From: Anoxybacillus amylolyticus
Lineage (GTDB): Bacteria; Bacillota; Bacilli; Bacillales; Anoxybacillaceae
Assembly (NCBI RefSeq): GCF_001634285.1
Contig: NZ_CP015438.1
Location: 306,501 to 370,500 of the forward strand
DNA length: 64,000 nt
Direction: 5' to 3'
Below are positions 118-41,744 of this stretch, piece by piece. Each line of letters starts with the position of its first letter. Position 1 is the first letter of the stretch. The notes beneath the pieces are model-generated. The model had not been told where the DNA came from, did not search any database, and was given only the letters and a program-made list of their open reading frames with translations. A program made the position numbers and the translations under genes.

Positions 118-624
118 GTGTTAACAGAACACGCAAAAGTGATGAAAGTATTGGAAGCGTCAGGGGAAATCGTCGGGCGAAAAAAGTTGCAAAAAATGAT
201 TTATATCGCGAAAAAGTTGCAATTTCCGTTTTATGAGAAATTTGATTTTCATTTTTACGGTCCATACTCCGAAGAATTAACGTGGCGCATCGAGGAGCTT
301 TGCAATTTAGGGTTTTTGCATGAAGCGAAAGAGAAAAAAGGCGGATATGTGCAATACCGCTATACGTTGACGGAAGCAGGGGAGCAATTTTTGTGCCACT
401 ATGACCTAGACATGCCGCATTTGCAAGATTGCTTGCAAGATATGAATGAACAGAACTCACGGTTTTTAGAGCTGGTTTCAACGGTGCTTTATTTTGAGCA
501 TTTGCCGAAAGAAGAGGTAGTAGAAAAAATTGTGTTGTTAAAAAGTAAGCAACGCTATACGGAAGAAGAAATCAACGCGGCGTATGCGTATATCAATAAA
601 CTTCGCGGCTACGTGCAGAGCTAG
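118..624 (+). CDS. ywgA: YwgA family protein
   Basis: A 168-residue cytosolic protein of unknown function, close in length and position to B. subtilis YwgA. The N-terminal part (residues ~15-60, with LQKMIYIAKKLQ followed by FHFYGPYSEEL) has the pattern 'KLQK..y.a...GP.s..L' that recalls the DUF4065/Panacea fold found in some antitoxin-like proteins; this is a resemblance by eye, not a proven relationship. No membrane segment or signal peptide. The GTG start at 118 follows the Shine-Dalgarno AGGAG (103-107) with a 10-base spacer. It is convergent with ywhB. Confidence 0.75.
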   Translation: MLTEHAKVMKVLEASGEIVGRKKLQKMIYIAKKLQFPFYEKFDFHFYGPYSEELTWRIEELCNLGFLHEAKEKKGGYVQYRYTLTEAGEQFLCHYDLDMPHLQDCLQDMNEQNSRFLELVSTVLYFEHLPKEEVVEKIVLLKSKQRYTEEEINAAYAYINKLRGYVQS

Positions 625-6401: not shown

Positions 6402-6767
6402 ATGGGGGTTCGCTTAATCAAAATTTCTGCCGTTTATTTTGCGGTCGGGGTTTGCTTAGGTCTTTATATGTCGATCGTACACTCATTTACACTCACGCCT
6501 GTGCACGTTCATATCAACCTACTTGGCTGGACAGCGCTGACGCTTGCTGGTATTATCTATCATTTATTTCCACAAATAGCGGCGACGACATGGGCAAAAG
6601 CACATTTTTGGCTTCATAATATCGGGTTGCCGGTCATGATGATTAGTCTTGCGTTTGTCGTTTCCGGCCACGAATCATGGATTCCGATTACTGCCGCTGG
6701 CGGCGTTCTCGTCACGCTTGGCGTGCTTAGCTTTGCGTGGAACGTGGTGAAAAACTTAAAATCATAA
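6402..6767 (+). CDS. Small heme-copper-oxidase subunit I-like membrane protein
   Basis: A 121-residue hydrophobic protein with about four membrane helices. The motif VHVHINLLGW, followed by IIYHLFP, resembles the helix II region of NorB/cbb3-type oxidase subunit I, where these histidines bind heme. At this length it can hold only a third of a catalytic subunit, so it is not a functional oxidase alone; it may be a stand-alone heme-binding or scaffold protein. Two adjacent ATGs exist (6399, 6402); AAGGAGG (6388-6394) is better spaced for 6402. A TTGACA at 6325-6330 overlaps the speB terminator but lacks a well-spaced -10. Monocistronic between two hairpins. Confidence 0.7.
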   Translation: MGVRLIKISAVYFAVGVCLGLYMSIVHSFTLTPVHVHINLLGWTALTLAGIIYHLFPQIAATTWAKAHFWLHNIGLPVMMISLAFVVSGHESWIPITAAGGVLVTLGVLSFAWNVVKNLKS

Positions 6768-6775
6768 AAAGGTCA

Positions 6776-6801
6776 AGGCGGTCTCTTTCTCGAGGCCGCC
6801 T
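6776..6801 (+). terminator. Hairpin after the small membrane protein gene
   Basis: A 10-bp stem AGGCGGTCTC / GAGGCCGCCT (6776-6785, 6792-6801; one G-T pair) with a six-base loop. There is no strong T-run, so it is an imperfect terminator. Confidence 0.55.
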
Positions 6802-6802
6802 A

Positions 6803-6831
6803 TTGCATGTGTTGCGGGCTTTTCTTATACT
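6803..6831 (+). promoter_or_regulatory. Sigma-A promoter of ywiB-argS
   Basis: TTGCAT (6803-6808), 17 bases, TATACT (6826-6831). The ATG at 6807 lies inside the -35 element, which argues that ywiB starts at the internal ATG at 6864. Confidence 0.6.
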
Positions 6832-6863
6832 TAATGAGAGTTCATATAGCAAGGTGTGAAACG

Positions 6864-7301
6864 ATGGAGAAAACGAACGGAACGCCGATTTTGCTGAAGC
6901 AAGTCACGGAAATTCGCGACGGTTTGCGAAAAGAAATTGTTGTCGTTGAAGCAAATGGTTTATACTACATAAAAGGGGATACGGTCTATTTAACATTTAA
7001 CGAGCAATATGAAGGTCGAACGGTAAAAAATGTGTTAAAAATTCACGAAGACGAAGTTGTTGTCCTTCGTTCTGGCGCGGTGCAAATGCGCCATACGTTC
7101 CGAAAGCATAAAGAAACGGTCGGGACGTATGAAAACGAAATGGCGCGATGGTTGTTGAAAACAAAAACAGATGAAGTGCGGTACCAATACAATGAAAAAG
7201 CGAAAAAAGGCCATCTATTTTTTTCTTACCTATTGCAGCTAGCAGATCGGGATGCTGGCCGGTATAAAGTAACGATTTTATTTAGGGAGGAACGAAGATG
7301 A
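6864..7301 (+). CDS. ywiB: YwiB family protein (DUF1934)
   Basis: A 145-residue protein of the YwiB/DUF1934 family, a small beta-barrel of calycin-like fold with no known function. I chose the ATG at 6864 ([11 protein letters not shown]) because it follows AAGGTGTG at proper distance, gives a length like B. subtilis YwiB, and the upstream ATG at 6807 falls in a promoter. The stop overlaps the argS start (ATGA), indicating translational coupling. No membrane segment is present. Confidence 0.8.
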
Positions 7302-8968
7302 ATATCGTGGAACAAATGAAAGAAAAGCTGAAAGAAGAAATTAAGCAGGCTGTTTTTAAAGCAGGGTTTGTCGCAGAAGGGGAACTACCGAACATCATTT
7401 TAGAAGTGCCGCGCGAAAAAGCGCACGGTGACTATTCGACGAATATGGCGATGCAGCTTGCCCGCGTTGCGAAAAAAGCGCCGCGCGTGATTGCCGAAGA
7501 AATCGTTCGTCATTTTAACCAAGACGCTGTTTCCGTCAAAAAAATTGACATTGCAGGCCCGGGCTTTATTAACTTTTACATGGACAACCGGTACTTAACG
7601 AATTTAATTCCGACCATTTTAGAAGCAGGAGCGTCGTATGGAGAAACAAACGTCGGCAACGGGCAAAAGGTGCAAGTCGAATTTGTGTCTGCCAACCCGA
7701 CCGGAAGCTTGCATTTAGGCCATGCGCGCGGGGCAGCGGTCGGTGACTCGTTGTGCAATATTCTAGAAAAAGCCGGATTTGACGTGACGCGCGAATATTA
7801 TATTAACGATGCCGGCAATCAAATTGCCAACTTGGCGAAGTCGGTTGAAGCTCGCTATTTCCAAGCGCTCGGTATCGAGAAAGAGATGCCGGAAGACGGC
7901 TATTACGGCGAGGATATTATCGAGTTAGGGAAAAAGCTAGCGGCAGAACATGGCGATAAGTTCGTTGGAATGGAGGAAACGGAGCGGCTGCAACAGTTCC
8001 GCGAATACGGGCTCGCCTATGAAATGGAAAAAATTAAAAAAGATTTAGCCGATTTCCGTGTAAACTTTGACGTATGGTATTCCGAAACGTCGCTGTACCA
8101 TAACGGAAAAATCGAAAAAGCGTTACAAGCATTGCGCGAAAAAGGGCACATTTACGAACAAGACGGGGCGACATGGTTCCGTTCGACGACGTTTGGCGAC
8201 GATAAAGATCGCGTGTTGATTAAACAAGACGGCTCGTATACGTATTTGTTGCCGGATATTGCGTATCATCAAGACAAGCTTGAGCGCGGATTTACAAAGC
8301 TGATTAACATTTGGGGCGCGGACCACCATGGCTACATTCCGCGCATGAAAGCAGCGATTGCGGCGCTCGGTTATGATCCAGACGTTCTAGAAGTAGAAAT
8401 TATTCAGCTTGTCAGCTTGTATCAAAACGGGGAAAAAGTCAAAATGAGCAAACGGACCGGTAAAGCGGTCACGATGCGCGATTTGATGGAAGAAGTCGGA
8501 TTAGACGCCACTCGCTATTTCTTTGCGATGCGTTCAAGCGATACGCATTTAGATTTTGATATGGATTTAGCCGTTTCGCAATCGAACGAAAACCCAGTGT
8601 ATTATGCGCAATATGCACATGCGCGCGTGTGCAGCATTCTTCGCCAAGGAGAGGAGCAAAATCTATCTTATGAAGGCGAATTGCAGCTAGAGTATATCCA
8701 GTCGGAAAAAGAAATCGAGCTGTTGAAAAAACTTGGCGAATTTCCAGCTGCGGTAGCGGAAGCTGCGCTTAAGCGCACCCCGCATCGCGTGACAAACTAT
8801 ATTTTTGAGCTGGCGTCAGCGTTGCATAGCTTCTACAATGCGGAGAAAGTCATCGACCAAGAAAACGTGGCAAAAAGCCAAGCACGCCTAGCGTTAGTGA
8901 AAGCCGTGCAAATCACGCTGCAAAACGCTCTGCAATTAATCGGCGTGTCGGCACCGGAAAAAATGTGA
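7298..8968 (+). CDS. argS: Arginyl-tRNA synthetase
   Basis: A 556-residue class I aminoacyl-tRNA synthetase that charges tRNA-Arg. The HIGH box reads HLGH ([10 protein letters not shown]), preceded by [10 protein letters not shown], and a KMSKR signature (VKMSKRTGK) lies near residue 385. The N-terminal additional domain (~1-110) and the helical DALR anticodon-binding domain at the C-terminus are both present, so the gene is complete. It overlaps ywiB by four bases and is followed by a strong terminator. Confidence 0.97.
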
Positions 8969-34661: not shown

Positions 34662-35810
34662 ATGAACATTCATAAATTTGTCATGCCGGAAGTAATTTTT
34701 GGAAAAAGTTCGATTCAACAAGTCGGGGAAAGTTGTTTACGGCTTGGCGCAACGAACGTACTTATCGTCAGCGACCCTGGCGTCATCGCCGCTGGTTGGC
34801 TTGATGTAATCGTGAAAAGCTGTCAACAAGCGGGACTACATTATACGACATTTTATGACGTTACGATTAACCCAAAAGATAGCGAAGTAGAAAAAGGATG
34901 CTGTGTGTATATCGAAAATGAATGTGATGCAATTATTGGAGTCGGTGGAGGAAGTCCGATTGATGTTGCGAAAGCGATAGCCATTTTAGCGACTAATGGA
35001 GGACAAATTCGTGACTATGAAGGGGTAGATAAAATTCACCATCCGCTCCCGCCACAAGTGATGGTTTCGACAACGGCAGGCTCAGGGTCAGAAGTGTCGC
35101 AATTTTCCGTGATCGTCGATACGAAGGAGAAAAAAAAGATGACGATCGTTTCTCGCTCGCTTATTCCTGATATTGCGATCATTGACCCGGAAACGTTATC
35201 GACAAAAAGCGCCCATTTAACGGCTTCGACAGGGCTTGACGTATTAACGCACGGCATTGAAGCGTACGTCAGCTTAGCGGCAACACCGTTAACAGACGTA
35301 CAAGCGAAAAACGCTATTTCCCTCGTTGCACAATATTTACGTCCTTCCGTAGCTTCCAAAATGAACGAAGAAGCGAAAACGAATATGGCGATGGCTAGTT
35401 TACAGGCAGGCTTAGCTTTTTCCAACGCCATTTTAGGGGCAGTTCACGCGATGTCCCACGCCGTAGGTGGAAAATATAACCTTCTCCACGGAGATGTGAA
35501 TTCGATTTTGCTGCCGCACGTCATGGAATACAACTTATTAGCTAACCCGAAAAAATTTGCCGATATCGCCCTTTTCCTTGGCGTCGATACTCGCGGACTT
35601 TCCGCAATGGAAGCTGGAAAAAAAGCAATCGACTATGTTAAGCAGCTCGCAATCGACATCGGAGCGCCTCAGCGGTTAGCCGATATCGGGGTGGAAAAAG
35701 ACGAGCTACAGAAAATGAGCGTTGTTGCGTTTCATGATGCGTGCATGATTACAAATCCACGGGATGTGACCGTCGAAGACATTCAGGAACTATTTAGAAA
35801 GGCATGGTAA
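34662..35810 (+). CDS. Iron-containing alcohol dehydrogenase
   Basis: A 382-residue group III alcohol dehydrogenase. The NAD-binding GVGGGSPIDVAKAI is followed by the four metal ligands Asp193, His197 (GLDVLTHGIEAY), His262 and His276 (VHAMSHAVGG, LLHGD). Members oxidise primary alcohols or diols to aldehydes, or run in reverse. It is the first gene of an operon with a histidine kinase and a sigma-54 activator, and a second ADH and an aldehyde dehydrogenase lie just beyond. The substrate (ethanol, butanol, diol or other) cannot be read from the sequence. Confidence 0.9.
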   Translation: MNIHKFVMPEVIFGKSSIQQVGESCLRLGATNVLIVSDPGVIAAGWLDVIVKSCQQAGLHYTTFYDVTINPKDSEVEKGCCVYIENECDAIIGVGGGSPIDVAKAIAILATNGGQIRDYEGVDKIHHPLPPQVMVSTTAGSGSEVSQFSVIVDTKEKKKMTIVSRSLIPDIAIIDPETLSTKSAHLTASTGLDVLTHGIEAYVSLAATPLTDVQAKNAISLVAQYLRPSVASKMNEEAKTNMAMASLQAGLAFSNAILGAVHAMSHAVGGKYNLLHGDVNSILLPHVMEYNLLANPKKFADIALFLGVDTRGLSAMEAGKKAIDYVKQLAIDIGAPQRLADIGVEKDELQKMSVVAFHDACMITNPRDVTVEDIQELFRKAW

Positions 35811-35814
35811 AACG

Positions 35815-37458
35815 ATGAACGAGCGGCAACAACTGATCACCATGTTAACCGGTGTACAATCTTCCAAACGAAGCTATTATACGGAATTAAAAAAAATGGT
35901 CGGCGAATTAAAAAAGAAAAATATGCAGCTAGAAATTATTAACGATATCACGAAAAGCTTCAATATCAATATGTCGATGGATGAAATGCTCAAAAACACG
36001 TTCGACAAACTAAAAGAAATTTTTCCGCTTGCAAGAATAAGTTTATCGCTATACGAACAAGAGCAGCTTATTTTAACAAACGTCTATCCAACACATGCCC
36101 TTTACTTTCCTATAGGATTTGCGCTGCCGAAAGAACGTTCGCTATATTGGAAAGCGATTCAATCGCTTGAAAAAATTTTTTATGAGGTAAAAAAAGAACC
36201 GGTATTTATTGAAACAAGCGTGTACGAAGCGTTAGGTATTCAAAGTGTACTACTTATTCCGCTCATGCGTAAAACCCAAGTGATCGGCGTCTTAAGCATC
36301 GGAAGCAAAGAAGTCGTTGCATACGACGAAGCAGACCTTTCTTTTTTTCAACAGTTTGGCGACCAACTAGCCGTTTGTATCGAGAATGCCCGCCTTTACA
36401 ATGAAGTATTAACGAGCAAAAAAGAATGGGAAGAAACGTTTCGCGCCGTTTCCGAAATGATTTTCGTCGTTGACTTAGACGGAAATATTTTGCGGTACAA
36501 CGACGCGGTCAAAACGTTTTTTTCTGACGTACAACAAACAAACATTTATGAGCTGCTAGAACTTGAACCAAGCGAGAATCCAATCATTGAAAATATCGAA
36601 ACGAAAAAACCAGTGCACCGACACTTGCGTATTCAACAACGCGTTTGCGAGTTGCACTCGTACCCTGTATGGAACGAACAGCAAAAAATGTATGCGGTCA
36701 TTATGTATATTAATGACATCACCGAAAAGCTACAAATCGAAGCCCAGCTCGTTCAATCTGGGAAGCTTGCCGCCATTGGGGAAATGGCGGCAGGCATTGC
36801 GCACGAACTGAACAATCCGCTCACGGCGATTCTTGGGAACGCTCAGCTGTTGTTGCGGTCAATGAAAGACGAGCGCTCCTACAAGTTATTATCCGACATT
36901 TATTCATGCGGAAAGCGGTGCAAAACGATCATTCAAAATTTATTGACGTTCTCGCGACAAGATGAATATATGTTTGCAGAATGCTCCATTAACGAGGCGG
37001 TCGAGCAAGTATTAGGGCTCATCGGCGATCAAATTCAAAAACAGAATATCACGATTCAAAAGCAACTAGATGATTCGCTCGAATTAATCGAAGGAAACAT
37101 TCAACAAATCGGACAAATTATTTTAAACTTTTTAATTAACGCAAAAGATGCGCTTGAAGAAATAGAGGACGAAAAGAAAACGATTACTATCGAAACGAAG
37201 CTAGTCACAGAGGCAGAAAAACGATGGGTTATTTTAAGCGTTAAAGACAACGGAAAAGGAATTAGCGAACAGCACTTGCAAGAAATTTTCCATCCGTTTT
37301 TCACGACAAAGCGACCGGGAAAAGGAACAGGACTTGGATTGTCTGTCAGTTTAGGAATCGCGCAAGCACACGGCGGCACGATTGAAGTCAGTAGCGAGCT
37401 CGGCAAAGGGAGCGAATTTCGGTTAAAATTACCGGCAAAAGAGGAAAGGGGAGGTTAG
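35815..37458 (+). CDS. Cytosolic sensor histidine kinase (GAF-PAS-HisKA)
   Basis: A 547-residue kinase without membrane helices. Order: N-terminal coiled coil (~15-45), GAF domain (~45-200, ending LAVCIENARLYNEV), PAS domain (~205-300), HisKA with phospho-His in GIAHELNNPLTAILGN (~331), and HATPase with N, G1 and G2 boxes (NFLINAKDALEE, DNGKGI, GTGLGLS). It likely senses a cytosolic signal such as an aldehyde, alcohol or redox cue and phosphorylates the response regulator encoded next. It starts four bases after the Fe-ADH stop and abuts the regulator gene (stop at 37458, ATG at 37459). Confidence 0.9.
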   Translation: MNERQQLITMLTGVQSSKRSYYTELKKMVGELKKKNMQLEIINDITKSFNINMSMDEMLKNTFDKLKEIFPLARISLSLYEQEQLILTNVYPTHALYFPIGFALPKERSLYWKAIQSLEKIFYEVKKEPVFIETSVYEALGIQSVLLIPLMRKTQVIGVLSIGSKEVVAYDEADLSFFQQFGDQLAVCIENARLYNEVLTSKKEWEETFRAVSEMIFVVDLDGNILRYNDAVKTFFSDVQQTNIYELLELEPSENPIIENIETKKPVHRHLRIQQRVCELHSYPVWNEQQKMYAVIMYINDITEKLQIEAQLVQSGKLAAIGEMAAGIAHELNNPLTAILGNAQLLLRSMKDERSYKLLSDIYSCGKRCKTIIQNLLTFSRQDEYMFAECSINEAVEQVLGLIGDQIQKQNITIQKQLDDSLELIEGNIQQIGQIILNFLINAKDALEEIEDEKKTITIETKLVTEAEKRWVILSVKDNGKGISEQHLQEIFHPFFTTKRPGKGTGLGLSVSLGIAQAHGGTIEVSSELGKGSEFRLKLPAKEERGG

Positions 37459-38898
37459 ATGCGTCATATTTTAGTCGTCGACGACGAACGCGAAGTTGGC
37501 ACATTTTTTCGCCACTTACTAGAAGAAAAAGGATATCACGTGACACTTGGGTTTAGTGGGCAAGATTTTTTCCAACTCATTCGCCAGCATCGCTTTGATT
37601 TGGCGTTGATTGATGTGAAGTTGCCGGATACGAACGGGTTAGATTTGTTAAAACAGCTAAAGCTTTCGCTTCCTGCTTGTAAGGTGGTGGTGATGACAGG
37701 CTACAGTACGGTAAAAACGGCGGTAGAAGCGATTAAATACGGGGCGAACGACTATGTTGAAAAACCATTTGATGACATCGACCAACTAGAGCAACTGATT
37801 GACGGACTGTTGCATAGCGGCGCTACGTCTGCCCAAAATGACATGTACAAGCTAGCCGAAACGCTTGGGTTCATGGTCGGGACAAATAAAGAAATGAATG
37901 ACTTGTTAAAGCTTGCCTACAAAATTGCGAAAAAAAACGTGAACGTGCTCATTGAAGGGGAAACAGGAACAGGGAAAGAGGTACTTGCCCATTTTATTCA
38001 TAGCGCGAGCATGCGCTACGACCAGCCGTTTATCGGCATCAATTGCGGTGCCGTTTCGGAAACGTTGTTGGAAAGCGAATTGTTCGGTCATGAAAAAGGG
38101 GCGTTTACTGGGGCGATAAAAGAAAAAAAAGGCATGTTCGAAATCGCCAATCGCGGCACGCTGTTTTTGGATGAAATTGGCGAAGCGACGCTAGCAACGC
38201 AAGTGAAATTGTTGCGCGTGCTAGAAACAGGGGAGTATATTCGCGTTGGCGGCGAAGCGATACGAAAAACGAATACGCGCATCATTGCCGCATCGCATGT
38301 GAATTTGGCAAAAGCGGTAGAAGAGAAAACGTTTCGCGAAGATTTGCTTTATCGGCTAGATGTCGTAAAACTAACGATTCCACCACTTCGTGAGCGGCTG
38401 GGAGACTTGCCGCTGCTTGTCGATTATTTCTTAAAAAAGTTGCATTCGCCACTATCGTTTTCGGAAGAAAGTCTTGCTTATATGAGCCAATACCATTGGC
38501 CAGGCAATGTCCGCGAATTGTTTAACGTCGTCAAACGCGCAGTAACATTGGCAGAAGGGGAAACAGCAGTGATTACCCCACCATACCTTCCGGAAAAACT
38601 GAAACCTTCGCACACTTCGATGCCAACGGTAGCAAAAAAGACGAGCGACACCGATTTGGAGACGTATTTGCATGAATGGACAAACGATGTTTTATCGTTA
38701 TGGAAAAAAAATGAGCCTATTGATTTAGAATATGTCCTGTCGTTAGTAAAAGAGCTTGAAACAACCATCGGACGTTCGTTTGTTATGAAAACGTTAAAAG
38801 AAACGATTGGCAATCGAAAAGAAACAGCCGAACGGCTCAACATTACCGTGCGCAAATTGAGGTATTTACTAAAAGAAAAAGGAGCTGACCAAAAATAA
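37459..38898 (+). CDS. Sigma-54-dependent response regulator (NtrC family)
   Basis: A 479-residue activator: receiver domain with Asp52 (LIDVKLPDTNG), AAA+ domain with P-loop GETGTGKEVLA (~165-175), GAFTGA loop (~214-219) contacting sigma-54, Walker B GTLFLDEIGE, and a Fis-type helix-turn-helix at the C-terminus (GNRKETAERLNITVRKLRYL). The intact GAFTGA means it should activate a -24/-12 promoter; a good one lies ahead of adhT. It is the third gene of the Fe-ADH operon. There is a ~60-residue linker between the AAA+ and DNA-binding domains. Confidence 0.93.
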   Translation: MRHILVVDDEREVGTFFRHLLEEKGYHVTLGFSGQDFFQLIRQHRFDLALIDVKLPDTNGLDLLKQLKLSLPACKVVVMTGYSTVKTAVEAIKYGANDYVEKPFDDIDQLEQLIDGLLHSGATSAQNDMYKLAETLGFMVGTNKEMNDLLKLAYKIAKKNVNVLIEGETGTGKEVLAHFIHSASMRYDQPFIGINCGAVSETLLESELFGHEKGAFTGAIKEKKGMFEIANRGTLFLDEIGEATLATQVKLLRVLETGEYIRVGGEAIRKTNTRIIAASHVNLAKAVEEKTFREDLLYRLDVVKLTIPPLRERLGDLPLLVDYFLKKLHSPLSFSEESLAYMSQYHWPGNVRELFNVVKRAVTLAEGETAVITPPYLPEKLKPSHTSMPTVAKKTSDTDLETYLHEWTNDVLSLWKKNEPIDLEYVLSLVKELETTIGRSFVMKTLKETIGNRKETAERLNITVRKLRYLLKEKGADQK

Positions 38899-38916
38899 GG
38901 TCAGCCCTTTCGTTTT
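38884..38916. terminator. Bidirectional terminator (regulator / aldehyde dehydrogenase)
   Basis: A 7-bp stem GCTGACC / GGTCAGC (38884-38890, 38899-38905) overlaps the regulator stop and is followed by CCTTTCGTTTT. The minus strand has CTCCTTTTTC, so both convergent genes could use it. Confidence 0.65.
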
Positions 38917-40432
38917 AGAAGAAGCCTAGAGCTCTCGGGTTGTAGCTAACGAGGATATTTTTCGTTTGTTGATAGTGTGCTAGCATCATATGGTGCGTTT
39001 CACGACCGATGCCGGACATTTTATAGCCGCCAAATGCCGCGTGCGCCGGATATGAATGATAGCAGTTCGTCCAGACGCGACCTGCTTGAATGCCCCGTCC
39101 GAATCGGTACGCGCGGTTAATGTTGCGCGTCCACACGCCTGCGCCTAGCCCGTATAACGTATCATTAGCAATTGCAAGCGCTTCGGCTTCGTCTTTGAAC
39201 GTCGTCACCGATACGACCGGACCAAAAATTTCTTCTTGGAAAATACGCATTTTATTATGGCCTTTAAAGACGGTCGGTTGAATATAGTAGCCATTTTCCA
39301 AGCCGGCAATCACATTTTTCTCCCCGCCAATGAGGCATTGCGCTCCTTCTTGTTTTCCGATATCGATATACGAAAGAATTTTCTCCATCTGTTCCGCTGA
39401 AGCTTGTGCCCCCATCATTGTCGAGGTGTCGAGCGGGTTTCCTGTTTTAATGTTTTGAACGCGCTCAAGCGCCCGTTCCATAAACGCCTCATAAATCGAC
39501 TCATGAATTAACGCTCTAGAAGGGCATGTGCACACTTCCCCTTGGTTAAGTGCGAACATGACAAATCCCTCGATCGCTTTATCCAAAAAGTCATCGTCGG
39601 CTTCCATGACGTCTGGGAAGAAAATATTCGGCGATTTCCCCCCTAACTCAAGCGTTACAGGGATAATATTTTGCGACGCATATTGCATAATTAAACGACC
39701 GGTTGTCGTTTCGCCCGTAAAGGCGATTTTGGCGATGCGCGGGCTAGATGCTAACGGCTTCCCTGCTTCGAGCCCGAAGCCATTGACGACGTTTAGCACG
39801 CCAGGCGGCAATAAGTCGCCAATCAACTCCAACAGCACCATAATCGATGCCGGCGTTTGTTCTGCTGGTTTTAGCACGATGCAGTTTCCAGCAGCGAGAG
39901 CAGGGGCGATTTTCCACGCCGCCATTAATAATGGGAAATTCCACGGGATAATTTGCCCGACAACGCCAAGCGGCTCGTGGAAATGATAGGCGACGGTATC
40001 GTCGTCCAATTGGCTAATCGTTCCTTCTTGGGCGCGAATCGCGCCAGCAAAGTAACGAAAATGGTCGATGGCCAGCGGCAAATCGGCGTTTAACGTTTCA
40101 CGAATCGGTTTGCCGTTATCCCATGTTTCTGCCACCGCGAGCATCTCTAAGTTTTCTTCCATGCGGTCCGCAATTTTATTTAAAATGAGCGCTCTTTCTG
40201 CGGGCGACGTTTTTCCCCACGCCTCTTTTGCTGCATGAGCAGCGTCGAGCGCTAACTCTATGTCTTCGGCTTGGGAGCGGGCGACTTCGCAAAATACTTC
40301 CCCAGTTACAGGCGTAATATTTGCGAAATATTGCCCGGAAATAGGCGGCACCCATTCCCCGTTAATATAGTTATCGTATCGTTTTTTAAATTGAACTTTT
40401 GCGTCTTTTTCTCCCGGTTGTCGATAAATCAC
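38915..40432 (-). CDS. NAD-dependent aldehyde dehydrogenase
   Basis: A 505-residue aldehyde dehydrogenase superfamily member that oxidises aldehydes to acids. The catalytic Cys301 ([11 protein letters not shown]) and general base Glu262 (LELGGKSPN) are present, with the NAD-binding [12 protein letters not shown]. The CTC pair and the C-terminus ([19 protein letters not shown]) match the AldB/AcoD acetaldehyde-dehydrogenase type. The GTG start at 40432 is preceded by GGGGGG on the minus strand. It lies 55 bases after adhT, so the two probably form an alcohol-to-acid pathway operon read from the sigma-54 promoter. Confidence 0.93.
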
Positions 40433-40458
40433 GTGAACCCCCCCTTATTTTTTTGCTA

Positions 40459-40481
40459 GGATGCCCCGAAGCGGGACACCC
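40459..40481 (-). other. Intercistronic hairpin between adhT and the aldehyde dehydrogenase gene
   Basis: An imperfect 10-bp stem (arms 40459-40468 and 40472-40481, two mismatches) with no T-run on the minus strand. Read on the minus strand it begins GGGTGTCCCG, the same ten bases found in the ywgA/ywhB hairpin. It may stabilise the adhT mRNA or partly reduce read-through. Confidence 0.5.
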
Positions 40482-40487
40482 TAAAGG

Positions 40488-41498
40488 TTACATTGTTAAA
40501 ACGATGCGACCGTTAATTTGTCCTTTTTCCATTTTCTCAAAAACATCATTAATTTTTTCTAGTGGAACCGCTTCCACGATTGGGCGAACTTTTCCGCGCG
40601 CTGCAAAATCTAACGCTTCTTGCATATCTTTTCTTGTGCCGACGATTGACCCTTTCACTGTCACACCGTTTAAGACTGTATCGAAAATCGGAATTGGCAA
40701 TTCATCGTGCGGCAAGCCGACAACGACCAGGCATCCACCGCGTTTAACTGAGCGATAGGCTTGCTCGAACGCTTTCTTCGTTACAGCGACGCTAATGGCA
40801 GCTTGGACACCACCTACTTTTTCTTGAATCGTTGCGACAGGGTCTTCTTTTAATCCGTTAATGGCAATATCTGCCCCTAATTTTGTCGCTAGTTCTGCTT
40901 TATCATCGCTAATGTCGACAGCGACGACATTGAATCCCATCGCTTTAGCGTATTGCAGCGCGATATGCCCCAAGCCGCCGATGCCGTAAATCGCCACCCA
41001 ATCGCCTGGCTTGGCATTTGATACTTTCAATGCTTTGTACGTCGTGACCCCTGCGCAAAGAATCGGTGCGACTTCGACTGGATCGAGATTTTCTGGGATG
41101 CGTGCGACATAATCGGCTGGCGCTTTGCAATATTCGGCATATCCGCCGTCAACGGAATACCCGCCGTTTAATTGGTGTGGACAAAGCGTTTCTTGTCCAC
41201 TTAAACAATATTCACATTCGCCGCATGCTGAGTATAGCCAAGGAATACCGACGCGGTCGCCAACTTTCAGCGATTTTACCCCTTCCCCAACTTCGACTAC
41301 AACTCCAACCCCTTCGTGACCAGGAATGAGCGGAAGCTTCGGTTTGACCGGCCAGTCCCCGTGGGCAGCGTGCAAGTCGGTATGGCAGACGCCACAAGCT
41401 TCAATTTTGACAAGCACCTCGCCATACTCGAGTGTCGGCTTTTCCACTTCCTCGATTCGAAGTTTTTGTTTGAACTCGTGAACAACTGCTGCTTTCAT
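40488..41498 (-). CDS. adhT: Zinc-dependent alcohol dehydrogenase (ADH-T type)
   Basis: A 336-residue medium-chain dehydrogenase closely resembling the thermostable ADH-T of Geobacillus stearothermophilus. Catalytic zinc ligands are Cys38 (CGVCHTD) and His61 (GHEGVG); structural zinc Cys92, 95, 98 and 106 (ACGECEYC...C). The NAD-binding Gly motif is [12 protein letters not shown]. It oxidises ethanol and similar primary alcohols. It is first in the operon with the aldehyde dehydrogenase and is preceded by a -24/-12 promoter, so likely under the sigma-54 activator encoded nearby. AAGGGGATAGGGAG precedes ATG. Confidence 0.95.
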
Positions 41499-41545
41499 TC
41501 TCCCTATCCCCTTTCCAAAAAATTTTTTGTTCGCCTATCTTAAAA

Positions 41546-41562
41546 TGCAAAAAGTATGCCAA
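41546..41562 (-). promoter_or_regulatory. Sigma-54 (-24/-12) promoter of adhT
   Basis: The minus strand reads TTGGCATACTTTTTGCA: GG of the -24 element and GC of the -12 element are exactly 12 positions apart, as required for RpoN promoters (consensus TGGCAC-N5-TTGCw), with a single mismatch (T for C after TGGCA). It lies 48 bases upstream of the adhT ATG. Confidence 0.8.
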
Positions 41563-41595: not shown

Positions 41596-41621
41596 AAAAA
41601 TGCCGAAATTACGGCATTTTT
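41596..41621. promoter_or_regulatory. Palindrome between adhT and prfA, likely activator site
   Basis: AAAAATGCCG / CGGCATTTTT (41596-41605, 41612-41621) is a perfect 10-bp inverted repeat with a six-base centre. It lies between divergent genes, 34 bases upstream of the adhT -24 element, so no gene ends here that would need a terminator. It fits a binding site for the NtrC-type regulator. Confidence 0.5.
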
Positions 41622-41744
41622 GAACGAATGATCGGCAGGTTGTTCACAAAATTGTCACATACGAATCAAACCTTTCTCCTTTCCCTAAACTGTAGTATAA
41701 TTAGAAATTAGACTGTGCATGGACAAAGGTAGAGGTGAATAAGT

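What the first reader, a model, noticed from the sequence alone, without database searches (positions are those of the whole stretch)
34662..41562. Sigma-54 two-component module controlling alcohol oxidation
An Fe-ADH, a soluble GAF-PAS histidine kinase and a GAFTGA-bearing NtrC-type regulator form one operon facing a convergent operon of ADH-T and an aldehyde dehydrogenase. A well-formed -24/-12 element (41546-41562, minus strand) precedes adhT. This implies alcohol-to-acid conversion is switched on by a cytosolic signal through RpoN. The genes and promoter are seen; the regulatory link is inferred. A phospho-signalled RpoN control of an ADH-T/ALDH pair would differ from the better known AcoR-type one-component control.
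Basis: partly seen in the sequence, partly recalled or inferred. Interest (0 to 1): 0.7.

Follow-up and report, generated by a model that had tools for sequence, protein, structure and literature searches.

The report
Sigma-54 two-component switch for alcohol dehydrogenase
A heat-loving Bacillus relative carries a three-gene signalling set (an alcohol-dehydrogenase-like protein, a sensor kinase and an activator) that very probably switches on a neighbouring alcohol dehydrogenase, and the same set recurs in many related bacteria, as if the dehydrogenase-like protein were part of the sensor.

Summary
Fe-ADH, soluble GAF-PAS kinase and NtrC-type regulator adjoin on the + strand, convergent with adhT-ALDH; TGGCATACTTTTTGCA precedes adhT. 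The genome has one RpoN, two full sigma-54 activators, and two intergenic, correctly oriented -24/-12 matches (adhT; ptb, beside the other activator). In 41 family genomes the element precedes 22 of 22 adhT orthologs and 0 of 16 paralogs; 20 of those 22 genomes carry kinase and regulator (one kinase split), none has them without adhT. In 40 further Bacillales loci Fe-ADH-HK-RR adjoin in 40, and 37 of 37 neighbouring ADH targets carry the element, even where another Fe-ADH replaces adhT. I also found the likely enhancer: tandem dyads GCCGAAnnTTCGGC, 21 bp apart, at helical steps from the promoter in 12 of 13 Bacillales families with a near dyad, and missing in the genome that lacks the regulators. 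The triad's Fe-ADH matches the regulatory family ErcA best (below its cut-off), so it may be part of the sensor (inferred). Two-component sigma-54 control of ADH has a precedent (Desulfovibrio DVU2394), so this is a new variant, not a new kind. Signal, reaction direction and phosphotransfer are untested.

The parts
34662..35810 (+). ErcA-like iron-containing alcohol dehydrogenase, first gene of the signalling triad; proposed sensor subunit
   Evidence: Pfam Fe-ADH; best NCBIfam match ErcA, 479 bits against 345 for the next, below the curated cut-off of 550; D193, H197, H262, H276 invariant in 19 aligned Fe-ADHs
35815..37458 (+). Soluble histidine kinase: N-terminal LTGV-SSK-YY-ELK stretch, GAF, PAS, HisKA (H330), HATPase
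37459..38898 (+). NtrC-type response regulator: receiver (D52), GAFTGA AAA+ domain, Fis-type HTH
   Evidence: one of two full sigma-54 activators in the genome
38882..38907 (.). Hairpin between the convergent operons, terminator-like on both strands
   Evidence: the scan as a whole finds 7 terminator-like sites against 11.2 in shuffles
38915..40432 (-). Acetaldehyde dehydrogenase, ExaC family; second gene of the target operon, lineage-variable
   Evidence: NF050026 ExaC 988 bits, over the cut-off of 900; absent or broken in 8 of 22 family loci
40488..41498 (-). adhT, zinc-dependent alcohol dehydrogenase (AdhP family); the conserved target
   Evidence: PRK09422 AdhP 435 bits, over the cut-off of 344; orthologs in 22 of 41 genomes
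41546..41561 (-). Sigma-54 -24/-12 promoter element TGGCATACTTTTTGCA
   Evidence: an element of this kind stands upstream of 22 of 22 adhT orthologs and 0 of 16 paralogs
41601..41616 (-). Promoter-proximal enhancer dyad (UAS) TGCCGTAATTTCGGCA
   Evidence: 11 of 12 core positions, 54 bases before the -24 T; only exact match in the genome; the one other place within one mismatch lies in a coding gene, six places with two mismatches were not examined
41622..41637 (-). Distal, degenerate enhancer dyad TGCCGATCATTCGTTC, 21 bp from the first
   Evidence: 21-bp register kept in most relatives

Best explanation
The triad is an alcohol- or aldehyde-responsive two-component system. The soluble kinase autophosphorylates on H330 and passes phosphate to D52 of the NtrC-type regulator. 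The regulator binds two GCCGAAnnTTCGGC dyads 21 bp apart upstream of adhT, forms a hexamer, and by DNA looping or contact on the same helix face drives RNA polymerase-RpoN at the -24/-12 element to transcribe adhT (with the ExaC-type ALDH where present). The ErcA-like Fe-ADH encoded in front of the kinase is proposed to be part of the sensor, binding or turning over alcohol or aldehyde with NAD and signalling to the kinase, perhaps through its conserved N-terminal LTGVxSSKxxYYxELK segment. Shown here: genes, domains, promoter, enhancer motif, conservation and spacing. Inferred: phosphotransfer, binding, activation, signal, and the role of Fe-ADH.
For: One RpoN and only two full activators in the genome, and two -24/-12 matches that are intergenic and point at a gene: adhT, and ptb beside the other activator. 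Element in 22 of 22 adhT orthologs against 0 of 16 paralogs. Of 41 genomes, adhT ortholog with HK and RR 20 (one kinase split), adhT without the full set 2, HK/RR without adhT 0, neither 19 (species are not independent). In 40 out-of-family Bacillales loci Fe-ADH-HK-RR 40 of 40, and an element before 37 of 37 neighbouring ADH targets (35 as TGGCAY-N5-YTGC; 2 as TGGTAC), including 8 where a second Fe-ADH stands in adhT's place. Dyad score at least 9 of 12 in 58 of 61 target promoters against 7.9% of shuffles; in the 39 of these outside the family 39 of 39, and in 5 more Bacillales promoters 5 of 5. Near dyads lie within 2 bp of a 10.5-bp comb in 12 of 13 families. Prediction met: in two genomes without a nearby target, adhT was found about 15-16 kb off with element and dyad. 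ErcA as best family for 6 of 6 HK-linked Fe-ADHs against 0 of 4 neighbouring second Fe-ADHs.
Against: No expression, binding or phosphotransfer data. G023 keeps adhT and the -24/-12 element without triad or dyad, so either the element is a relic or another activator serves it. The dyad was first seen by eye in the family set, scores only 8 in 3 of 22 there, and its scored core was trimmed by one base at each end. One other -24/-12 match of the genome, inside a coding gene, also has a 9 of 12 dyad (L006). Beyond Bacillales the dyad reaches 9 in 2 of 9 promoters tested, and neither is on the comb. One of two adhT promoters found by prediction (G079, dyad at 63) is 3 bp off the comb. Genomes are related, so Fisher p-values are optimistic. 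Fe-ADH as sensor rests on linkage and an HMM ranking below the curated cut-off.
Confidence: 0.85

Rival explanations
1. The triad's Fe-ADH is an ordinary metabolic enzyme that merely shares the operon; the kinase senses its ligand directly through GAF or PAS.
For: Residues recalled as metal ligands are kept, and the kinase has GAF and PAS domains of its own. Outside the order 12 of 28 related kinases have no Fe-ADH within 1.5 kb.
Against: Fe-ADH adjacency in 40 of 40 Bacillales loci while the target enzyme is swapped; retained even where the target is itself a second Fe-ADH; ErcA-type against YiaY-type split. Three Fe-ADH-linked kinases (L186, L188, L201; 392-398 aa) lack the GAF region but keep the LTGV N-terminus.
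Confidence: 0.38
2. Another activator (the 688-aa protein at the ptb-bcd-buk locus) or cross-talk, not this regulator, works the adhT promoter.
For: It is the only other full activator found in the genome, and G023 keeps the element without the triad.
Against: The ptb promoter lacks the dyad (best 7 of 12); in G023, which lacks the triad, the dyad is not above chance.
Confidence: 0.07
3. The palindrome is a transcription terminator or prfA-related element and the -24/-12 is chance; adhT uses a sigma-A promoter.
For: AAAAATGCCG...CGGCATTTTT can fold as a hairpin with a T run; 8 of 10 genome matches to the -24/-12 pattern lie in coding sequence.
Against: Conserved across families, mostly in a tandem 21-bp register and at helical steps from the promoter; the terminator scan does not report this palindrome.
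Confidence: 0.04

Closest known systems
Desulfovibrio vulgaris DVU2394 (with DVU2395, DVU2396) controlling DVU2405 adh-hdr-flx
   Same: Two-component sigma-54 regulator (GSFTGA) with an ADH operon as target (PMC3333781 and PMC4641369, passages); DVU2396 is an iron-containing ADH (PMC10920352, table passage); DVU2394, DVU2395 and DVU2396 all acquire mutations in evolved lines (PMC7439460, passages).
   Different: Target is adh-hdr-flx, not adhT-ALDH; the reported binding site is a direct repeat, here inverted repeats in tandem. Sequence relation not tested (no Desulfovibrio locus held). That DVU2395 is the kinase is recalled.
Pseudomonas ErcA/YiaY with co-cistronic kinase ErcS/PP_2683 (ethanol oxidation, ped/exa cluster)
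   Same: Fe-ADH co-transcribed with a histidine kinase, both needed to induce alcohol-oxidation genes; an NAD-site mutation impairs induction (PMC12997753, one section and passages). Best NCBIfam match of the window Fe-ADH is ErcA.
   Different: There a hybrid kinase and the regulator AgmR with PQQ-ADH targets; here a non-hybrid kinase, NtrC-type regulator and RpoN. Window Fe-ADH falls below the ErcA cut-off.
Clostridium beijerinckii AdhR
   Same: Sigma-54 activator of ADH genes with several upstream sites; GAF and PAS domains in the signalling path (PMC7017808, outline and passages).
   Different: One-component: GAF and PAS are in AdhR itself; no kinase. UAS of TGT-N10-12-ACA type (PMC6615313, passage).
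AcoR/BkdR-type SigL activators of Bacillus (recalled)
   Same: RpoN (SigL) control of a small catabolic operon in Bacillales.
   Different: Ligand-binding one-component activators rather than a phosphorylated response regulator.

Membership tests
NtrC-type sigma-54 response regulator | Receiver with phosphorylatable Asp, AAA+ with GAFTGA, Fis-type HTH | tested here: met
   Pfam; D9, D52, T80, K102 invariant, GAFTGA in 14 of 15 aligned regulators, GSFTGA in one
NtrC-type sigma-54 response regulator | RpoN present and a -24/-12 promoter at the target | tested here: met
NtrC-type sigma-54 response regulator | Upstream activator sites, helically placed | tested here: met
   (sequence only; Bacillales only)
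NtrC-type sigma-54 response regulator | Phosphorylation-dependent activation | not testable with these tools
   needs protein
ErcA regulatory Fe-ADH | NCBIfam NF041833 score over the curated cut-off of 550 | tested here: not met
   479 bits; 451-513 in five relatives; still the best-scoring family in 6 of 6
ErcA regulatory Fe-ADH | Co-encoded with a histidine kinase | tested here: met
ErcA regulatory Fe-ADH | Required for induction of alcohol genes | not testable with these tools
   needs a deletion
AdhR / AcoR one-component activator | Sensory domain in the activator itself, no receiver | tested here: not met
   receiver domain at the N-terminus
DVU2394 triad | Orthology of RR, HK and Fe-ADH | not tested
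ExaC acetaldehyde dehydrogenase | NF050026 over the cut-off of 900 | tested here: met
   988 bits

The most novel reading that the evidence does not exclude
The Fe-ADH is the alcohol sensor: a dehydrogenase that docks on a kinase through the kinase's conserved LTGVxSSKxxYYxELK N-terminus and reports substrate or NAD(H) occupancy. Fe-ADH-HK-NtrC would then be one old 'enzyme as sensor' module, found here in Bacilli, in other Bacillota and in a Desulfuromonadaceae contig, that controls whichever ADH lies nearby and that unifies the unexplained ErcA/ErcS of Pseudomonas with the Desulfovibrio DVU2394-2396 genes. (Raised from 0.45 to 0.5: kinases that lack the GAF region still keep the N-terminal segment next to the Fe-ADH.)
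Probability: 0.5. Interest if true: 0.75.

Novelty: new variant of a known kind. Interest (0 to 1): 0.56.

Why it matters
It gives a named promoter, enhancer and regulator for adhT, a gene type that I recall as used in biotechnology of thermophiles, and shows a phospho-signalled RpoN system in Bacillales, where the SigL activators known to me are one-component. It makes an open question testable in a simple setting: how does an alcohol-dehydrogenase-like protein (ErcA) act in signalling? In this genome one clear target promoter was found, so the readout is clean. The stepped enhancer positions are also a natural experiment on helical phasing of sigma-54 enhancers.

Tried and rejected
A possible second regulon member (dyad at genome position 626129) lies inside the homoserine dehydrogenase gene (named by eye) and was rejected as chance; six places with two mismatches were not examined. 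Of the ten -24/-12 matches in the genome, eight are inside coding sequences and were rejected. Searching plasmids for the kinase and the Fe-ADH gave no relative of 60% identity or more and no record covering 80% of the kinase (40 of 2269 and 40 of 1986 records listed). The AlphaFold model of the kinase (12-sequence alignment, mean pLDDT 74, pTM 0.37; residues 13-19 under 50) was too weak to argue docking from, and no fold search was run on it. The sigma-70 and terminator scan of the region finds no clear excess over shuffles (11 against 10.0 and 7 against 11.2), so I claim no sigma-A promoter. Of the 80 loci of the genome-contig scan I compared L189-L208 with the five proteins; L209-L268, mostly partial kinase matches, were not examined. 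Papers: no description of this triad in Bacillales was seen in search listings 14, 26, 27, 35, 45, 46, 55 and 92; only open-licence papers are held. The original ercA paper (10.1128/JB.00531-13) is not held; I rely on the review PMC12997753.
Full report
The window lies at G000:C1:306501-370500 of a 3.16-Mb genome held as three contigs. Among named kinase hits the nearest is Anoxybacillus tengchongensis (81% identity); others are Heyndrickxia (57%), Neobacillus and Shouchella (50%) (a capped list). Counts below are for all items a call examined unless said otherwise.

ANATOMY. On the + strand Fe-ADH (34662-35810), histidine kinase (35815-37458) and regulator (37459-38898) follow each other with 4 and 0 bases between them; on the - strand adhT (40488-41498) is followed by an aldehyde dehydrogenase (38915-40432), and the two sets converge on a hairpin at 38882-38907. 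The ALDH is over the curated cut-off for the acetaldehyde dehydrogenase ExaC and adhT for AdhP. The Fe-ADH scores best against ErcA, 'alcohol dehydrogenase-like regulatory protein' (479 bits, cut-off 550, next family 345). The regulator keeps D52 and GAFTGA, the kinase H330, and the kinase has no clear membrane helix.

PROMOTER AND GENOME CONTEXT. TGGCATACTTTTTGCA (41546-41561, -) starts 63 bases upstream of the adhT start. By pattern alone it is not rare: TGGCAYNNNNNTTGCW has 10 matches genome-wide against 6 for the reversed pattern. But 8 of the 10 lie inside long ORFs; two are intergenic and point at a gene: adhT, and ptb of a ptb-bcd-buk-lpd-like locus (named by eye). The genome has one RpoN. 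Of six Sigma54_activat hits only two are full activators (over 200 bits): this regulator and a 688-aa protein beside ptb; the other four score 32-43 bits, and the family finds matches in all 14 control genomes. Two activators and two promoters pair off by position.

FAMILY TEST. In all 41 genomes held of the family: kinase (E up to 1e-60) in 20, regulator (E up to 1e-120) in 21, one of these truncated (G038), adhT orthologs (88-100%) in 22. Both sets 20, adhT without the full set 2 (G023, G038), HK/RR without adhT 0, neither 19 (Fisher 9e-10; species are related, so read this as a guide). G025, counted among the 20, has its kinase gene interrupted by about 1.4 kb. Fe-ADH precedes the kinase in 19 of 20 loci and, with the wider stretch of G025, in the twentieth. 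An element TGGCAY-N5-TTGC stands 56-65 bases before 22 of 22 adhT orthologs (seven of them end in TTGCG rather than TTGCA or TTGCT). None is found before 16 of 16 copies of a 72-75% identical adhT paralog (8, 8; one with only 99 bases of upstream sequence). ALDH is next to adhT in 14 of 22, broken in 1, not seen in 7.

ORDER. Of 397 genomes of the order, 47 have the kinase at E up to 1e-80 (three candidates scored per genome, so a lower bound), 41 of them outside the family; I fetched 40 of these 41 (G148 left out). Fe-ADH, HK and RR are neighbours in that order in 40 of 40. Within the stretch there is an adhT ortholog in 29, a second, different Fe-ADH in 8, no target in 3; an ALDH stands beside the target in 14. 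A -24/-12 element precedes 35 of the 37 targets as TGGCAY-N5-YTGC and the other two as TGGTACGCTTTTTGCA and TGGTACGGTTCTTGCA. The 40 loci hold 37 sites of the first form against 1-10 in ten Markov nulls, and 35 of the 37 are at the targets. No such site stands directly before the triad's Fe-ADH, though in L123, L124 and L140 the target lies upstream on the same strand and could read into it. So the target gene has been exchanged between unrelated enzyme families while the regulators and the promoter type stayed.

Two of the three loci without a target were used as a prediction test (G223 was not). In G118 all 25 pattern matches of the genome were fetched, in G079 15 of 27. In both an adhT ortholog (83-84%) turned up about 15-16 kb from the triad with the element and a dyad of 11 and 10 of 12. 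These were not the top dyads: in G118 one site scored 12 (L342) and one tied at 11 (L343), in G079 one scored 11 (L367). L343 and L367 precede the same kind of gene, an acyl-CoA synthetase by eye, with the dyad at -215 in both genomes, and may be a second target.

ENHANCER. Upstream of the element lie two dyads, TGCCGATCATTCGTTC and TGCCGTAATTTCGGCA, 21 bp apart (two helical turns). A tandem pair spaced 19-24 bp is matched by at most 1 of 200 shuffles in 21 of 22 family promoters, with best spacing 21 in 20 of the 21 (20 in G031); in G023, the one genome with adhT but no trace of kinase and regulator, 76 of 200 shuffles match it. The consensus was read from these promoters by eye, so the fairer test is outside the family. 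There the 21-bp pair is matched by at most 1 of 100 shuffles in 34 of 39 Bacillales promoters and by 3-9 in five. The single dyad, scored on a core that I trimmed by one base at each end, reaches 9 of 12 in 39 of 39, against 7.9% of shuffled regions; in the family 19 of 22 do (G023, G032 and G039 score 8), and 0 of 8 paralog regions do. Five more Bacillales promoters (L123, L124, L200, L341, L359) all score 10-11. In the own genome the ptb promoter scores 7, and of the other nine pattern matches one, in a coding gene, reaches 9. Outside Bacillales only 2 of 9 promoters of second Fe-ADHs reach 9 (L285, L287), so the motif is a Bacillales trait as far as tested.

Among Bacillales promoters, dyads within 115 bases of the -24 T stand at 54-56, 65-67, 76-77 and 85-89 (R = 0.90 at 10.5 bp for 28 genus-level positions); all were within 2 bp of a 10.5-bp comb in the 12 families with a near dyad (five further families have only far dyads). 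With the promoters the count is 12 of 13: G079 stands at 63, 3 bp off, and G118 at 64, 2 bp off. The cut at 115, the origin of the comb and its tolerance were chosen after seeing the positions, and part of the comb (55 against 76, 66 against 88) follows from the tandem register itself; the step from 55 to 66 does not. Eleven far positions (120-226) show no phasing (R = 0.20), as expected if short DNA must present the activator on one face and long DNA need not. I take this as good evidence that the motif works as an enhancer of this promoter.

NATURAL LOSSES. G038 has lost Fe-ADH and HK and keeps a truncated RR between tdk and prfA, with adhT, element and dyad still there. G023 carries adhT elsewhere, beside ORFs that look like transposases by eye, with the element but without dyad or triad.

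THE Fe-ADH. In 398 genomes of the phylum 35 have the kinase at E up to 1e-70 (also a lower bound). Of 28 loci from outside the order, with 1.5-kb flanks, 16 have the Fe-ADH beside the kinase. Twenty were fetched wider: among nine without an adjacent Fe-ADH two have it after the regulator (L269, L273), and 8 of 11 Fe-ADH-adjacent loci also have a second Fe-ADH with its own -24/-12. A Desulfuromonadaceae contig has the triad too (L198). HK-linked Fe-ADHs score best as ErcA in 6 of 6 scanned; neighbouring second Fe-ADHs score best as PRK09860 (E. coli YiaY type) in 4 of 4, with ErcA third (all below cut-offs). Residues that I recall as metal ligands (D193, H197, H262, H276) are invariant in 19 of 19, so the protein could still be catalytic.

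The kinase's N-terminus (LTGVxSSKxxYYxELK, where Pfam reports no domain) is a candidate docking segment. LTG[VI] is there in 22 of 22 Fe-ADH-adjacent kinases from L161-L206 whose start was read (14, 8) and in 9 of 15 non-adjacent ones (two of the nine have an Fe-ADH after the regulator). Among the 40 Bacillales kinases 39 have it; in L149 the frame as read starts too late. In L186, L188 and L201 the kinase is only 392-398 aa and lacks the GAF region, yet the segment is kept directly before PAS and beside the Fe-ADH. This speaks for an input that is not the GAF domain. In Pseudomonas, yiaY/ercA and its co-cistronic kinase are both required for induction of alcohol genes, and a direct N-terminal contact has been modelled (PMC12997753, one section and passages read). 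Docking remains a hypothesis.

NOVELTY. Sigma-54 control of ADH is known (AdhR, PMC7017808; Clostridiales regulons, PMC6615313, where 387 of 431 activators are one-component; passages). A two-component sigma-54 regulator of an ADH operon is known in Desulfovibrio vulgaris (DVU2394; PMC3333781, PMC4641369, passages), two locus numbers from an Fe-ADH gene (DVU2396; PMC10920352, passage). A 2025 survey lists class IV ADH and ALDH among sigma-54 targets of Bacilli in general terms (PMC12316311, passages). I saw no description of this triad in Bacillales in search listings 14, 26, 27, 35, 45, 46, 55 and 92. I file it as a new variant: the same kind of control, in Bacillales, with an ErcA-like Fe-ADH built into the operon and a defined, stepped enhancer.

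UNCERTAIN. No experiment shows binding, phosphorylation, activation, the inducer or the direction of the reaction. Species are related, so p-values are guides.

Noticed in passing
L299 (G025:C1:672000-690000), about 6600-7970: The kinase gene is split by about 1.4 kb of inserted sequence after residue 99, while Fe-ADH, regulator, ALDH, adhT and the promoter remain.
   Followed up: partly
L052 and L077 (G035): The ALDH beside adhT lacks roughly residues 63-250: a decaying target gene while adhT and the regulators are present.
   Followed up: no
L343 (G118) and L367 (G079): An acyl-CoA synthetase gene (by eye) with a -24/-12 element and a dyad of 11 of 12 at -215 in both genomes: possible second member of the regulon.
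   Followed up: partly
L342 (G118:C1:1926193-1927808): A perfect 12 of 12 dyad at -134 from a -24/-12 match before a gene that resembles an Orn/Lys/Arg decarboxylase (by eye): chance or a further target.
   Followed up: no
L168, L170, L171, L172, L177: Kinases with the LTGV N-terminus preceded by a ThiF/MoeB-like gene (by eye) instead of an Fe-ADH.
   Followed up: no
L186, L188, L201: Short relatives of the kinase (392-398 aa) without the GAF region, with the LTGV N-terminus joined directly to PAS and an Fe-ADH next door.
   Followed up: partly
window 383-398 (-): A second match to the -24/-12 pattern, inside a coding ORF; taken as chance.
   Followed up: yes
G000:C1:2465034-2468049 (L011, L300): -24/-12 match 52 bases before ptb, beside a 688-aa activator: probably a SigL/BkdR-type bkd operon as in other bacilli (names recalled).
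   Followed up: partly
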